DNA of 11,510 bases. Origin: Magnetococcales bacterium. Lineage in GTDB: Bacteria > Pseudomonadota > Magnetococcia > Magnetococcales > JADFWU01. The notes beneath the pieces were generated by a model, which was not told where the DNA came from, did not search any database, and was given only the letters and a program-made list of their open reading frames with translations. The translations under genes were made by a program, and so were the position numbers. This document shows, one piece after another, positions 318 to 11,510 of the stretch. Position 1 is the first letter of the stretch. Each line of letters starts with the position of its first letter. Location: assembly GCA_015234045.1 (NCBI GenBank), contig JADFWU010000073.1, positions 1-11,510 on the forward strand. The letters run 5' to 3'.

Positions 318-644
318 TCACTGACTTAAAGCAATACGAACCCGCTTTAACGTCTTGCTTTTCACCTCTTTTGAGTGCTCTAGTTTGCTGATATAGGCTT
401 GGGAAACCCCCATGCGTTCAGCAAGTTCAATCTGCTTGAGACCGGCTTTTAGTCTAGCAAGAGCCACTGGATTCTGAATATAGTCAGCTGGTTCAAAATC
501 TTCATATTCATCACTCTCGCCAACAGTGATATCCAGATCTGATAGCTCATCTTCGATTTCACTTTTTAGGGCTTCAAAAACCTTTACGGGCACAAGAACA
601 TACTCGTCCTGACCGTCCATTCCTTTGATGACCTGTAAGTTCAT
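318..644 (-). CDS. Xre/HTH-type antitoxin of a RelE/ParE-like toxin-antitoxin pair
   Basis: This 108-residue protein should neutralise the toxin encoded just upstream and act as DNA-binding repressor of the pair. The C-terminal half (about residues 59-105) is an Xre/Cro-type helix-turn-helix: NPVALARLKAGLKQ, then ELAERMGVSQAYISKLE covering the turn and recognition helix. The N-terminal half (1-35) looks like a toxin-contact or dimerisation segment, joined by an acidic linker (29-52). Its ATG overlaps the toxin's TGA in an ATGA junction, so the two are translationally coupled. A GAGGAG ribosome site lies inside the toxin's last codons, ten bases before the ATG. The toxin-first order with an HTH antitoxin resembles higBA-type loci. 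A diverged remnant of a second such gene lies at 1441-1482. Whether it binds the palindrome at 903-916 is inferred. Confidence 0.85.
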   Translation of the reverse strand: MNLQVIKGMDGQDEYVLVPVKVFEALKSEIEDELSDLDITVGESDEYEDFEPADYIQNPVALARLKAGLKQIELAERMGVSQAYISKLEHSKEVKSKTLKRVRIALSQ

Positions 645-901
645 TTGTACACATCTCCTCTGGACCGTATACGTTCGATAGCGATGATTTTCACAGCGTC
701 CTGACGGTCATAGATCACACGCCATCCACCAACCCTCAGCCGGTACAAATCTGTTCCCGTCAGAGACTTGGTATCCAGTGTGATGGAATCTGGATCTTGT
801 CCAAGCTCCATGATTTTATCAACGATCCGAAGCCGTGTTTTTGATGTCAGATTCTGAAGCTTACGTTTGGCTTCTCGTCGGATTTTTATTGAATAGGACA
901 T
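641..901 (-). CDS. RelE/ParE-superfamily toxin
   Basis: This 86-residue basic protein has the RelE/ParE fold pattern: an N-terminal beta strand (MSYSIKIRREAKRKL), two helices (8-36), then the diagnostic C-terminal sheet LYRLRVGGWRVIYDRQ followed by AVKIIAIERIRSRGDVYK. RelE-like members cleave mRNA on the ribosome using arginines and lysines in these strands; ParE-like members poison gyrase. The basic residues R54, R56, R61, R77, R79 and R81 are compatible with an RNase, but the activity class is not settled by sequence. It is the first gene of a two-gene operon with the HTH antitoxin. No Shine-Dalgarno sequence precedes its ATG, and the predicted promoter would start transcription at about the A of the ATG (see the promoter entry). 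The small size, coupling and location inside an integrated element support a stabilising toxin-antitoxin locus. Confidence 0.87.
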   Translation of the reverse strand: MSYSIKIRREAKRKLQNLTSKTRLRIVDKIMELGQDPDSITLDTKSLTGTDLYRLRVGGWRVIYDRQDAVKIIAIERIRSRGDVYK

Positions 902-937: not shown

Positions 938-1233
938 TCAGCATATCAGCCGCATAATCAATCAATAGCAATTTAGCTATGAACAATCAGGCAGCTATGA
1001 AACCCTAGTCTTTGTCTATCATAATCTGTCAGGAGCTTTTTCAACTTTCGATTCACGGCCACCTTATCGAACCCTATAGCCACCAAACAATAACACCACC
1101 CCTGCAAAGGGTGGTGAATAGTCGGTTTTGCTCTTTACATCACAGGTCAAGTATATATAAACGATGTTTACTTGTGATCCTTGAAACGTTACCACTTGCC
1201 CGTCGCAAGCCAATTGATTTCATTAACTGAATT
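938..1233. other. Non-coding interval between the toxin promoter and the tRNA fragment
   Basis: No credible gene is present; the longest open frame (1012-1230, +) begins with TTG, lacks a ribosome site and resembles nothing I know. The stretch holds a stem-loop (1094-1116) and an inverted repeat CAAGTA...TACTTG (1148-1153 and 1169-1174) around a GTATATATAAAC motif. As the segment between an integrase gene and the recombination core, it is where integrase arm-type and excisionase sites would be expected, but I cannot identify any with certainty. Confidence 0.4.
1094..1116. repeat. 8-bp perfect stem-loop
   Basis: CACCACCC (1094-1101) and GGGTGGTG (1109-1116) form a perfect 8-bp GC-rich stem with a 7-base loop. 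There is no clean run of T residues directly after the stem on either strand (TTTT appears only after GAATAGTCGG on the plus strand), so it is a poor intrinsic terminator. It may be a protein-binding or recombination site. Confidence 0.5.
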
Positions 1234-1282
1234 CTGGCCTCTCACGCCGGCAACAGGGGTTCGAATCCCCTTGGGGACGCCA
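1234..1282 (+). tRNA. tRNA-Glu(CTC) 3' fragment, probable integration attachment site
   Basis: The fragment has a complete anticodon arm: stem CTGGC/GCCGG (one T-G pair) and loop CTCTCAC with anticodon CTC at 1241-1243. It continues through a variable region, a full T-arm (AGGGG / TTCGAAT / CCCCT), the 3' acceptor strand TGGGGAC, discriminator G and an encoded CCA ending at 1282. The acceptor and T-arm match the familiar bacterial tRNA-Glu pattern. The D-arm and 5' acceptor (expected near 1208) are absent; the bases there do not fold or match. A tRNA 3' half without its 5' half is the typical product of tyrosine-recombinase integration into a tRNA gene. With this orientation, the element lies to the left and the intact gene at its other end. 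It is not a functional tRNA. Confidence 0.85.
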
Positions 1283-1558: not shown

Positions 1559-2722
1559 CTAGCCTGATCGCATTTTCATTGGATAGAGCTTTGGAAACCA
1601 ATCATCCAAGACATCTACCGGGAACCCTAATCTCAAAGGTTTTCTTGGTCCTTCAGTACGCAACAAACCAAGTGCCAACAACTTATTAACAACGTTTCTA
1701 GCATGGCGCATTTGAAGACCTGTCAGATTTGCCACATCACTGCGTCTGATTTCACCAGCAAATAAGACCTCACGTAATACACGATTGGTCCCCTTTGGTA
1801 CTGCATTCTGCTGTACATATCGATCAATACGCTCTGCCAGTCCTGCCGGGTCAAGTAGTTCCCCCATGAAAACCACTTGATCAATAGCTGTTTCCAACAT
1901 GAACTGACTGAATACATTAAGCTGCTTTAGAGACAAATGCCCCCGGCCATCCAGGTCTCCTTGACGTGGCATATCTGCCCCCATCAACAACTCCTTGTAT
2001 CTTTTCTCCTGACGTGCAAGCCCTCGTGAAACTGACCATAGACCACTTCCAACTTCGCACTCTTTTAAAATTGCATGGGTCATTAGCCGAGCCACTCTAC
2101 CGTTACCATCCAAAAATGGATGAATCCATAATAATCTATGGTGTGCGGCTGGAATGGCCTTAATACGATCCAATGTTGAACCGTGGGAATACACATCCTG
2201 AAAGCGTCTCATGAATCGGTCTATGCTTTCAGGAGCAATACCAATATGTCCACCCACCCGAACATCCTTTTTTCTGAATGCACCGGGAATTATCTCTACT
2301 CTTTCTCCAGTCTCTGGGTTTTCAACCCACCTTAAGCTATCTGGAAGGTGCGCATAAAACTCTCTATGCACCCACTTTAGACACTCAGGACTGGTGGGCG
2401 CATAAGGCAAGGGGTATTCATCAATCAATGCTTGAACGTGAATATGCGCATTCGCTTCCAACTGAAGATCCCGTTGTTTTTGATCCAGGGAATAGTCATC
2501 AGACAATGCCCGATCAATATCTACAGGATGTGTGTTATGCCCCTCAATCAAGTTGCTATAGTAGCAGTTCATTGAGCGTACTATCCCGGCAACAGAGCGT
2601 GCCACTGTTTGATTTAATCGCCCTGCCAGAGTGGAGGCCTGTTGGACTAACTCAAAGGTCAGATCATCCAATTCCTTCGATTGGGTTGGAACCATTGGTT
2701 CCATCAATGATGTGCTTTGCAT
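1559..2722 (-). CDS. Class II Fic domain protein with C-terminal winged-helix region
   Basis: Fic enzymes usually transfer AMP from ATP to a hydroxyl side chain of a target protein. This 387-residue protein has the full active-site motif HPFLDGNGRVAR (residues 201-212), with catalytic H201 and the phosphate-binding GNGR. An N-terminal inhibitory helix motif SNLIEG (56-61) matches the (S/T)xxxE(G/N) consensus, with E60 as the obstructing glutamate, which places it in the self-inhibited class II group. The segment 145-165 (IPGAFRKKDVRVGG) is the target-docking flap typical of the family. Residues ~305-387 look like a winged helix (SDVANLTGLQMRHARNVVNKLLALGLL). No antitoxin partner is encoded nearby. 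The ATG at 2722 has no clear Shine-Dalgarno sequence and overlaps a copy of a 13-bp repeat; M7 is an alternative start. The target protein is unknown. Confidence 0.9.
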   Translation of the reverse strand: MQSTSLMEPMVPTQSKELDDLTFELVQQASTLAGRLNQTVARSVAGIVRSMNCYYSNLIEGHNTHPVDIDRALSDDYSLDQKQRDLQLEANAHIHVQALIDEYPLPYAPTSPECLKWVHREFYAHLPDSLRWVENPETGERVEIIPGAFRKKDVRVGGHIGIAPESIDRFMRRFQDVYSHGSTLDRIKAIPAAHHRLLWIHPFLDGNGRVARLMTHAILKECEVGSGLWSVSRGLARQEKRYKELLMGADMPRQGDLDGRGHLSLKQLNVFSQFMLETAIDQVVFMGELLDPAGLAERIDRYVQQNAVPKGTNRVLREVLFAGEIRRSDVANLTGLQMRHARNVVNKLLALGLLRTEGPRKPLRLGFPVDVLDDWFPKLYPMKMRSG

Positions 2723-2746
2723 TGCCGGTCATTATTGCCTGTTTAT
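2721..2746. promoter_or_regulatory. Two degenerate 13-bp repeat copies overlapping the fic start codon
   Basis: ATTGCCGGTCATT (2721-2733) and ATTGCCTGTTTAT (2734-2746) are adjacent, in 13-bp register, and match the unit ATTGCCGGTTGAT of the upstream array. The first overlaps the fic ATG. A DNA-binding protein that recognises the array, possibly the winged-helix tail of Fic itself, could block fic expression here; that is inference. Confidence 0.45.
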
Positions 2747-2802
2747 AGAGTTGATTTATTCTTCATAATATCAGCAATGTATATCGACATGCACGGCCTA
2801 TG

Positions 2803-2862
2803 ATTGCCGGTTGATATTGCCGGTTGATATTGCCGGTTGATATTGCCGGTTGATATTGCCGG
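2803..2862. repeat. Tandem 13-bp repeat array upstream of fic (4.6 units)
   Basis: Four perfect copies of ATTGCCGGTTGAT occur head to tail (2803, 2816, 2829 and 2842), followed by a partial ATTGCCGG at 2855-2862. No interruption or variation is present. The array ends 81 bases before the fic ATG on the minus strand, and two decayed units lie at the start codon. Iteron-like spacing of a little over one helical turn suggests operator or protein-binding sites. A replication-iteron role is unlikely since no Rep gene or AT-rich origin is adjacent. Perfect tandem identity would also permit slipped-strand copy-number change. Confidence 0.85.
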
Positions 2863-3022
2863 AATTTTTCCCTGTATTATCCACTGAATTATTCGATAGT
2901 ATGAGAGTGAAAAGCACGGGATAGAGCATATTTAGAAGTGGAGCAAGTGGCTATTTACCCACCATGATCTGTGGAGTCATCTCCAAGTCGTTCATATCCC
3001 GGATAATGGCTGTATTGTAGGC
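2863..3022. other. Intergenic region with possible DUF433-like N-terminal remnant
   Basis: No intact gene is present. On the minus strand, 2951-2995 reads MNDLEMTPQIMVGK and then TAG. This resembles the opening of small DUF433-family proteins (VapB-like antitoxin partners), which typically continue KPVIKGTRI, but here the frame stops. A GATAAT hexamer preceded by TG (minus strand, about 2878-2883) could be a -10 for fic, although no good -35 is visible. Confidence 0.3.
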
Positions 3023-5191: not shown

Positions 5192-5196
5192 ATAAA

Positions 5197-5242
5197 CCGA
5201 ACAACCATCCGCTGAAGCGGGTAGGTTCCTATTGGCAGACTG
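5197..5242. repeat. Dispersed repeat, copy A
   Basis: This 46-bp segment aligns with 10188-10232 at 37 of 46 columns, including GAACAACCA, CGCTGAA and TATTG blocks. It contains a small perfect hairpin CCGCTgaAGCGG (5209-5220). It separates the sulfotransferase TTG start from the terminator-like hairpin of the pump gene. It is likely a genome-wide interspersed repeat. It lacks the TATGCGAAGCAGATCATCA tail found in the other copies. Confidence 0.6.
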
Positions 5243-5249
5243 AAAACCC

Positions 5250-5271
5250 CGATACCGGCTAAAGCCGATCG
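5250..5271 (-). terminator. Terminator-like hairpin after the cation efflux gene
   Basis: On the minus strand, CGAT-CGGCT-tt-AGCCG-gt-ATCG forms a 9-bp stem with a 2-base bulge, followed by GGGGTTTTCA. It starts nine bases after the pump's TGA. The T-run is short, so termination may be partial and leave some read-through to the sulfotransferase gene. Confidence 0.45.
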
Positions 5272-5279
5272 AGCATCCC

Positions 5280-6482
5280 TCATCTTAATGATTCCGTCAT
5301 TCCCGTTTTTTTTGGCCTATCTCCGCTCAATAGTAAATGGATCACCGCATCAGACACCGGTATGGCTCCTTTCAGCTTCTGGCGAAAACGCGCGGCTTGT
5401 TCATGAAGCTTTTTGATTGATCCGTTTGAACCTTCTACCAAGGTTATTTCCAGAAACATACCGCTTGCTGTTTGGTGTGTAGTGATGTTTTGTACAGCTT
5501 GAAATGCTTCTACTTCGGCCAACAGAGCATTGATTTGTTGTTCCAGTTGATCATGGAAAACAGGACTGGAATCAAACTCACTCTGTTCGTCTTCAATATC
5601 CACATGGGTCAGGATATGGCGTAGATTTGGTGCACTCTCTTTTAGCGCTTGTTCAGCTTTTCGAGCGATTTGATGGCCTTCTGATACGGTCAGAAATGGA
5701 TTGACCACAATGTGACATTCAACAGCCCGATCAGGTCCGAGACGACGTCCTTTGAGCTGGTGAACACTGATCACTCCAGGAACTGACAGAAGCGTCTGCT
5801 CCATGCGTTCCAAAGTGGGTTTAGTTAGGTCGTGCTCTACGAGTTCTTGAAGTGAGGTTTGCAGAAAAGTCCACCCCATTTTTCCAATAAACAGCGCGAC
5901 AAAAATCGCCATCATGGGATCCATCAATGGAAAACCCATCATGGCAGCGGCAATTCCAATCAATGCCGCTATTGATGAAATAGCATCGGAGCGGTGGTGC
6001 CACGCATTGGCGATCAAGGCAGGCGAATCATGATGCCGCCCTACCCGTACCGTGACGTGATAGAGCCACTCCTTGATTGCAATGGATAGAACTGCGCCCC
6101 AAAGGGCAATTTGGGAAGGAATGACCGGAGGCGTATCCTTCAGCATTTCTGTAATAGCATCGTAAGCGATACCCAATGCCACCATGGACAATCCGAGTGC
6201 CAAAAACAGCGTTGCCAAGGTTTCAAACTTGCCATGACCGCTGGGATGCTCCCGATCAGGCGGCTCCTTGGCCCAGCGCAGAGCCAATAGGACAACACCA
6301 TCTGAAACCAGATCTGACAGAGAATGAATCCCATCAGCGACCATGACAGAAGAACGACCGATCAAACCAGCAGCAATTTTCAGACCCGCCAAAAATAGAT
6401 TAAAACCAACGGATAACCACGTAACCCGCTGGCTGGCGGAATAACGTGACTCGGATGATTTGGTCTGGCGTATGTCAGTCAT
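5280..6482 (-). CDS. Cation diffusion facilitator (CDF) family metal efflux transporter
   Basis: CDF proteins export divalent metals (Zn, Fe, Mn, Co, Cd) in exchange for protons across the inner membrane. This 400-residue protein has about six membrane helices between residues 20 and 210. Paired transport-site motifs are H53-SLS-D57 in TM2 (VADGIHSLSDLVSD) and H162-HRS-D166 in TM5 (NAWHHRSDAISS). The first cytoplasmic dimerisation domain spans ~215-300 and includes conserved histidines and acids (H257, H293, D295). An additional ~90-residue segment (310-390) resembles a second copy of that ferredoxin-like fold, longer than standard ~300-residue members. The ATG at 6482 has a near-ideal GGAGGTGAT ribosome site. 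A Fur-box-like sequence lies in the promoter, suggesting Fe(II) as substrate, though the motif set is also compatible with zinc or manganese. Confidence 0.92.
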   Translation of the reverse strand: MTDIRQTKSSESRYSASQRVTWLSVGFNLFLAGLKIAAGLIGRSSVMVADGIHSLSDLVSDGVVLLALRWAKEPPDREHPSGHGKFETLATLFLALGLSMVALGIAYDAITEMLKDTPPVIPSQIALWGAVLSIAIKEWLYHVTVRVGRHHDSPALIANAWHHRSDAISSIAALIGIAAAMMGFPLMDPMMAIFVALFIGKMGWTFLQTSLQELVEHDLTKPTLERMEQTLLSVPGVISVHQLKGRRLGPDRAVECHIVVNPFLTVSEGHQIARKAEQALKESAPNLRHILTHVDIEDEQSEFDSSPVFHDQLEQQINALLAEVEAFQAVQNITTHQTASGMFLEITLVEGSNGSIKKLHEQAARFRQKLKGAIPVSDAVIHLLLSGDRPKKTGMTESLR

Positions 6483-9992: not shown

Positions 9993-10407
9993 TACGTTTC
10001 CAAGTTCATCGTGGTAGCGACTCAGTTATTTTTTCTATGTTACCTTCCTCAAGCAGAGAGAATGCATTAGACGATGAGGTTTGATTTGCAATTGATGGGT
10101 AAATTTTATGAATTTTGTATGATTTTAGACCGGTATGCAGATAATCTCCAGGTATTCGATGAAATCCTCTCACCTGTAATACACTGACTGAACAACCACT
10201 CGCTGAACCGGGCGGGTTCGTATTGCGGACTGCTATGCGAAGCAGATCATCAGAGCAAAAATATCACCAGGGATGGAACGGCTGACTGTTCAATTTTTAG
10301 ACGAATTCACTATATTAGATTGGAGTAAAAACAATTATAAGATTCATTAATATTATTAAAATTATTATTTCAGGCAAAAATAGTTTCATACAGTCCAATT
10401 AAAATCA
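9993..10407. other. 415-bp intergenic region with dispersed repeat and AT-rich stretch
   Basis: No convincing gene is present. A 37-codon plus-strand ATG frame (10074-10187) has no ribosome site and no recognised family. The region holds repeat copy B (10188-10252) and a very AT-rich stretch (about 10305-10385), which may contain the kinase promoter. A minus-strand TTATAA, 17 bases, TAATAT pairing near 10314-10342 is one weak candidate. No clear terminator for the diguanylate cyclase gene is visible. Confidence 0.4.
10188..10252. repeat. Dispersed repeat, copy B
   Basis: The first 45 bases align with 5197-5242 (37 of 46 columns). The last 19 bases, TATGCGAAGCAGATCATCA (10234-10252), are identical to the final 19 bases of the window. 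Two small hairpins are present: GAACC/GGTTC (10205-10219) and TGCT/AGCA (10231-10244). No open frame runs through it. It may be a REP- or MITE-like interspersed element. Confidence 0.65.
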
Positions 10408-11352: not shown

Positions 11353-11491
11353 GAGTGATTGTATCTCGGCTGGAACGTCATCATGAGAATGAATATCAAT
11401 CAGATTAACAGATCAAAGAACATAGATCAAAACTTGACAATGAATCACAACCTGAGTGGAAGCCCTGGTGATGTTTTTGCGCCGCTTTTGA

Positions 11492-11510
11492 TATGCGAAG
11501 CAGATCATCA
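11492..11510. repeat. Dispersed repeat, copy C (cut by window edge)
   Basis: TATGCGAAGCAGATCATCA is identical to 10234-10252 and reaches the window's last base. The preceding ~140 bases upstream of the diguanylate cyclase start hold no gene that I can support and do not resemble the first part of copy B. Confidence 0.6.

What the first reader, a model, noticed from the sequence alone, without database searches (positions are those of the whole stretch)
2721..2862. 13-bp tandem array in front of fic with two degenerate units in the same 13-bp spacing at the start codon
Four perfect units and a partial unit lie at 2803-2862, and two diverged units at 2721-2746, the first overlapping the fic ATG. 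Fic genes are not generally known for iteron-like control regions. The protein ends in a winged helix, so an autoregulatory Fic-operator circuit is a testable idea. The perfect copies could also vary by slippage and alter expression.
Basis: partly seen in the sequence, partly recalled or inferred. Interest (0 to 1): 0.6.

Follow-up and report, generated by a model that had tools for sequence, protein, structure and literature searches.

The report
Repeat-array operator controlling a Fic gene
The short tandem repeat in front of this Fic (AMP-transferring enzyme) gene is the expanded local form of a control sequence found in front of most genes of this Fic subfamily, and its letters change in step with the DNA-reading helix at the end of the Fic protein, so the enzyme very probably switches its own gene.

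Summary
Four perfect 13-bp units plus a partial one (2803-2862) and two diverged units (2721-2746) lie in front of fic, and the array occurs nowhere else in the genome. It is not a local oddity. Among 72 non-redundant upstream regions of fic homologues with the same C-terminal winged helix (three phyla), 63 carry an 8-mer direct repeat at exactly 12 bp; chance gives about 4. A second set of 39 new loci gives 28. Distant Fic genes, downstream regions and coding regions lack the signal. Units sit in two clusters about 55, 66 or 79 bp apart that flank a promoter, and the second cluster reaches the start codon. The unit co-varies with the recognition helix: Arg at residue 343 goes with C at unit position 6, any other residue with A (66/66 in the first set, 19/20 in the second), and Arg339 goes with G at position 4 (58/58). 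The best reading is an iteron-like operator read by Fic's own winged helix, most likely for autorepression. One precedent exists, the Yersinia Fic protein CccR, with a widely spaced inverted repeat. I found no report of direct-repeat Fic operators in open papers. Binding and sign of regulation are inferred.

The parts
1559..2722 (-). fic gene, 387 aa, class II-like Fic (N-terminal inhibitory motif SNLIEG, active-site motif HPFLDGNGRVAR) with C-terminal winged helix
   Evidence: Pfam Fic PF02661 E=9e-14; both motifs present in 77/77 homologues; AlphaFold2 model, mean pLDDT 83.8
1628..1789 (-). winged helix-turn-helix, residues 312-365 (helices 312-322, 327-334, 338-350; wing strands near 354-355 and 363-365)
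   Evidence: AlphaFold2 secondary structure, pLDDT above 90 for most of the domain; aligned together with the rest of CccR 7xux, Z 28.4 over model residues 5-382
1673..1711 (-). recognition helix, residues 338-350, with the inferred specificity residues R339 and N343
   Evidence: covariation with unit positions 4 and 6
2803..2863 (-). upstream operator cluster: five unit cores ACCGGCAAT at -141, -128, -115, -102 and -89 relative to the A of the ATG, 13-bp period; the outermost core is 8/9 (TCCGGCAAT)
2734..2742 (-). downstream operator unit, core ACAGGCAAT, at -20
2721..2729 (-). downstream operator unit, core ACCGGCAAT, at -7, running into the ATG start codon
2765..2770 (-). probable -10 box TATTAT, 28 bp upstream of the downstream unit, the most favoured distance across homologues; no good -35 match
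   Evidence: positional enrichment is modest and the tool's consensus scan reports no minus-strand promoter here
2720..2722 (-). fic start codon; the N-terminus aligns with homologues at this ATG

Best explanation
The array is an iteron-like operator for the fic gene, read by the winged helix at the C-terminus of Fic itself. Each unit (core A[T/C/G]CGG[C/A][A/C]A; here ACCGGCAAT) is bound in one orientation by one winged-helix domain. Two clusters of units, in direct repeat at 12 bp (13 bp here), flank the RNA-polymerase site: one upstream of the -35 region and one between the -10 region and the start codon. When Fic accumulates it fills both clusters and shuts its own promoter, which keeps an AMP-transferring, potentially toxic enzyme at a low set level. 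Shown here by computation: the array, its conservation, its two-cluster geometry and its covariation with the recognition helix. Inferred: that Fic binds it, that binding represses, that occupancy is cooperative, and that the extra units in this genome arose by repeat expansion and raise affinity or cooperativity.
For: 63 of 72 non-redundant upstream regions have an 8-mer repeat (at most 1 mismatch) at lag 12, and 13 of 72 at lag 13; dinucleotide shuffles give 4.2 (maximum 8) and 3.0; downstream regions 8/68; fic coding regions 6/72. A second set of 39 new loci gives 28/39 at lag 12, while the other lags from 8 to 19 give 0-6. Distant Fic genes: 3/20, none operator-like. The two clusters are separated by quantised distances, 54-57 (9 loci), 64-69 (34), 76-79 (10), with a -10-like box most often 27-28 bp before the downstream unit (22 calls at these two distances against a mean of 3.7 per distance). 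In a scan of protein columns, the column with the strongest association with unit position 6 is residue 343 (uncertainty coefficient 1.00) and with position 4 residue 339 (0.92); both lie on the recognition helix, four residues apart. Arg343 goes with C and non-Arg with A in 66/66; both traits switch five times on a catalytic-domain tree, and the switches coincide. The second set agrees in 19/20. The operator pair is unique in the genome and sits only in front of fic. CccR, the closest solved structure by VIA-align (Z 28.4 over 336 residues), is an experimentally proven autorepressor (PMC9755527).
Against: No binding or expression data. The covariation rests on five switches, three of them on strongly supported branches; the tree-based sign test on so few pairs cannot reach significance. 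Operator distance also correlates with protein windows outside the HTH, so the whole-helix Mantel test is not specific, and some columns outside the HTH associate strongly with other unit positions. About 12% of the first set and 28% of the second show no lag-12 pair. The window's -35 is poor. The sign of regulation is by analogy and promoter geometry only.
Confidence: 0.85

Rival explanations
1. The same operator, but Fic bound at the upstream cluster activates transcription, or acts as activator upstream and repressor downstream.
For: The upstream cluster lies just beyond the -35 region, as many activator sites do, and -35 boxes are weak in the window and several homologues.
Against: Most loci also have units between the -10 region and the start codon, where a bound protein would block transcription. 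The one studied Fic-HTH regulator is a repressor (PMC9755527).
Confidence: 0.12
2. Another DNA-binding protein, not Fic, reads the array.
For: Autoregulation is inferred; some plasmid copies have an HTH gene next door.
Against: Most fic copies have different neighbours, the array follows fic across three phyla, and unit letters track residues of Fic's own recognition helix.
Confidence: 0.05
3. The repeats are plasmid replication or partition iterons, or a mobile-element site that merely lies beside fic.
For: Many homologues are on plasmids, some beside repC or mobF. The 12-bp direct-repeat form resembles centromere iterons read by winged-helix proteins such as TubR (own knowledge). A 12-bp match to the unit also occurs in a dispersed MITE-like repeat.
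Against: The same layout occurs in a 4.6-Mb single-contig genome and on other large chromosomal contigs, always placed around the fic promoter. The dispersed repeat never carries a 13-bp neighbour.
Confidence: 0.03
4. A slippage-prone tandem repeat with no operator function (chance expansion or phase variation).
For: Perfect copies imply recent expansion; copy number differs among homologues (up to eight units in L134 and L172).
Against: The motif, orientation, spacing and place are conserved where there are only two or three units. Copy-number change may still modulate the operator.
Confidence: 0.03

Closest known systems
CccR of Yersinia pseudotuberculosis (PDB 7XUX; PMC9755527)
   Same: Fic domain with (S/T)xxxE(G/N) inhibitory motif plus C-terminal HTH; full-length fold match, Z 28.4 over 336 residues; represses its own gene through the HTH, 3.3-fold, shown by lacZ fusion, EMSA and footprint.
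   Different: Its reported operator is a pair of inverted 10-bp boxes (AGATAATCAT) 26 bp apart, not a 12/13-bp direct-repeat array. It is a secreted effector. Sequence identity is about 19%.
SoFic (Shewanella Fic; PDB 3EQX, 3ZCN; anti-phage family SoFic in PADLOC)
   Same: Class II Fic with C-terminal winged helix; PADLOC SoFic profile hits the window protein (82 bits, E=1e-23).
   Different: Far below the NCBIfam equivalog cut-off (20.9 against 550 bits). No direct-repeat operator reported in the papers searched.
CbFic2 of Coxiella burnetii (PMC10628234; PDB 8CIL)
   Same: Fic plus winged helix that binds DNA; DNA binding changes its AMPylation/deAMPylation activity.
   Different: The paper found high affinity for random DNA, with no defined operator.
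Iteron-type direct-repeat operators and centromeres read by winged-helix proteins, e.g. TubR-tubC (own knowledge)
   Same: Direct repeats of about 12 bp read by a winged helix, with autoregulation of the adjoining gene.
   Different: Unrelated proteins; no Fic domain. Resemblance only, not tested here.

Membership tests
Class II Fic AMP-transferases | Active-site motif HPFx[D/E]GNGRxxR | tested here: met
   HPFLDGNGRVAR at residues 201-212; motif in 77/77 homologues
Class II Fic AMP-transferases | N-terminal inhibitory motif (S/T)xxxE(G/N) | tested here: met
   SNLIEG at residues 56-61; motif in 77/77
Class II Fic AMP-transferases | AMP transfer to a target protein | not testable with these tools
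   needs biochemistry; target unknown
Fic-HTH autorepressors (CccR type) | Fic domain fused to a C-terminal HTH, same overall fold | tested here: met
   7xux_A Z 28.4, 336 residues, model residues 5-382
Fic-HTH autorepressors (CccR type) | Operator of two inverted 10-bp boxes about 26 bp apart | tested here: not met
   operator here is direct repeats at 13 bp
Fic-HTH autorepressors (CccR type) | Represses its own promoter | not testable with these tools
   inferred from geometry and covariation only
SoFic equivalog (NF046030) | Score above the curated cut-off of 550 bits | tested here: not met
   20.9 bits
Direct-repeat operator of this Fic-winged-helix subfamily (described here) | Units at 12-13 bp in two clusters flanking the promoter, same orientation as fic | tested here: met
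   window: five units at -141 to -89 and two at -20 and -7
Direct-repeat operator of this Fic-winged-helix subfamily (described here) | Unit letters at positions 4 and 6 predicted by residues 339 and 343 | tested here: met
   window R339 with G4 and N343 with A6

The most novel reading that the evidence does not exclude
The array is more than a repressor site. By gathering many Fic molecules in a row it may control the enzyme's activity as well as its amount: DNA-bound Fic stays inactive (or becomes active), and loss of binding, for example when phage DNA or DNA damage titrates Fic, would release an AMP-transferring toxin. That would make the Fic gene its own antitoxin, with DNA as the sensor.
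Probability: 0.12. Interest if true: 0.8.

Novelty: new variant of a known kind. Interest (0 to 1): 0.62.

Why it matters
How single-gene Fic toxins are kept in check is an open matter: class II Fics carry an internal inhibitor but usually no separate antitoxin. Here a whole subfamily, spread over plasmids and chromosomes of three phyla, turns out to carry a recognisable operator next to the gene and a simple residue-to-base correspondence on its recognition helix. This gives a ready test set for Fic autoregulation, a way to annotate regulated Fic genes from sequence alone, and a natural series of winged-helix specificity switches.

Tried and rejected
(1) Dispersed repeat: ATTGCCGGTTGAA, one mismatch from the unit, occurs 17 times in the genome, mostly at one end of a MITE-like repeat. 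I considered that the array derives from it; rejected as the origin because relatives in the same class and distant homologues carry the same core in front of fic. The 12-bp identity remains unexplained. (2) Whole-helix Mantel test: significant for the recognition helix given the catalytic domain (r 0.32, p 0.0002), but other protein windows score as high, so it is not used as proof. (3) Regulon search: no second operator pair in the genome, so no evidence for other targets. (4) A clear sigma-70 -35 box for the window was not found. (5) No viral-contig homologue; one distant partial phage match. (6) Literature: seven searches of the open library found no direct-repeat Fic operator; subscription papers are mostly not held. 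(7) L012 was excluded from the covariation count because its units are not credible. L160 is the one exception in the second set, with a weak two-copy call.

Full report
WHAT IS THERE. The array is as described: period 13, 2803-2862, 4.6 perfect copies, with two diverged units at 2721-2746 in the same spacing. Shuffled windows do not produce either feature. Read on the fic strand the unit is ATCAACCGGCAAT, with core ACCGGCAAT. Relative to the A of the fic ATG the cores start at -141, -128, -115, -102, -89, then -20 and -7; the last runs into the start codon. The genome holds no other such pair, and none of the other 47 genomes of the class has the array.

THE GENE. The 387-residue protein has a Fic domain, the active-site motif HPFLDGNGRVAR and the inhibitory motif SNLIEG. 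Both motifs are present in all 77 homologues examined. The AlphaFold2 model (mean pLDDT 83.8) ends in a winged helix with recognition helix 338-350. The best solved match by VIA-align is 7xux, CccR of Yersinia pseudotuberculosis (Z 28.4, 336 residues, helix domain included; identity of 7XUX from PMC9755527).

CONSERVATION. I collected homologues 34-56% identical to the window protein from whole genomes, genome contigs and plasmids. Of 72 non-redundant upstream regions, 63 contain an 8-mer direct repeat at lag exactly 12, and 13 at lag 13. Other lags stay near the chance level of about 4, apart from lag 24, which is twice 12. Downstream and coding regions show no such peak at lag 12. Twenty distant Fic genes do not show it. 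Thirty-nine further loci fetched afterwards gave 28 at lag 12. The carriers include Alpha-, Beta- and Gammaproteobacteria, the window's own class, Melainabacteria and Rhodothermales.

GEOMETRY. Units lie in the orientation of fic, in an upstream and a downstream cluster. The distance from the last upstream to the first downstream unit is quantised: 54-57, 64-69 and 76-79 bp, that is, steps of about 12. A -10-like hexamer is most frequent 27-28 bp upstream of the downstream unit; the window has TATTAT at exactly 28. So the clusters flank the polymerase site. Some members have long arrays (eight units of 12 bp in L134 and L172). The window is therefore one of several independent expansions, here with 13-bp spacing.

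WHO READS IT. In a scan of all variable protein columns against all unit positions, the column most strongly associated with unit position 6 is residue 343 (uncertainty coefficient 1.00) and with position 4 residue 339 (0.92). Both sit on the recognition helix, four residues apart. Arg343 goes with C6 and anything else with A6, 66 of 66. On a tree built only from the rest of the protein, each trait changes five times and the changes coincide. Arg339 goes with G4 in 58 of 58; the eight proteins with Val or Ala there have A, C or T in seven. The rule was noticed on the first set by eye before being computed, so the second set is the fairer test: 19 of 20 credible unit calls obey it. Arginine reading guanine (the partner of C6, and G4) is the commonest protein-base contact (general knowledge).

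MECHANISM. Most likely the winged helix of Fic binds each unit, both clusters fill, and the promoter is closed. CccR sets the precedent for autorepression by a Fic-HTH protein (PMC9755527). The operator form differs: CccR was reported to use inverted boxes 26 bp apart. The sign of regulation, cooperativity and the effect of copy number are inference.

LIMITS. The genome is a 117-contig assembly, so unit number may be mis-assembled. No near relative is held, so slippage cannot be judged. The held literature lacks most subscription papers, so novelty is judged against open papers only.

Noticed in passing
window 1233-1282 and about 1283-1428: 3' half of a tRNA-Glu(CTC) gene plus flank, matching the intact tRNA-Glu locus on contig C82 (83-91% in two pieces); looks like an attachment-site remnant of an integrated element near fic and the toxin-antitoxin pair.
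   Followed up: partly
G000 contigs C6, C20, C22, C24, C25, C29 and others (L054-L070): Dispersed MITE-like repeat with ends TTAGGCGTTACGCAATTGCCGGTTGAA ... TTCATTCAACTGCGTAACGCC; one end shares 12 bp (ATTGCCGGTTGA) with the fic operator unit. It could be coincidence, or dispersed single decoy sites for Fic.
   Followed up: partly
window 318-901: A ParE/RelE-like toxin (641-901) and HTH antitoxin (318-644) pair on the same strand, downstream of fic.
   Followed up: no
window about 5195-5280, 10180-10260, 11460-11510: Copies of a dispersed repeat (CACTCGCTGAACCGGGCGGGTTCG ... GCGAAGCAGATCATCA) between genes, seen by eye.
   Followed up: no
L126, L127 (Rhodobacterales plasmids): The fic homologue sits immediately beside repC, so this Fic with its repeat operator may be part of plasmid maintenance modules.
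   Followed up: no
PMC9755527: The two published CccR boxes also share GATAATC in the same orientation, 37 bp apart (about three 12-bp steps), so they could be read as direct repeats as well as inverted ones; not pursued.
   Followed up: no
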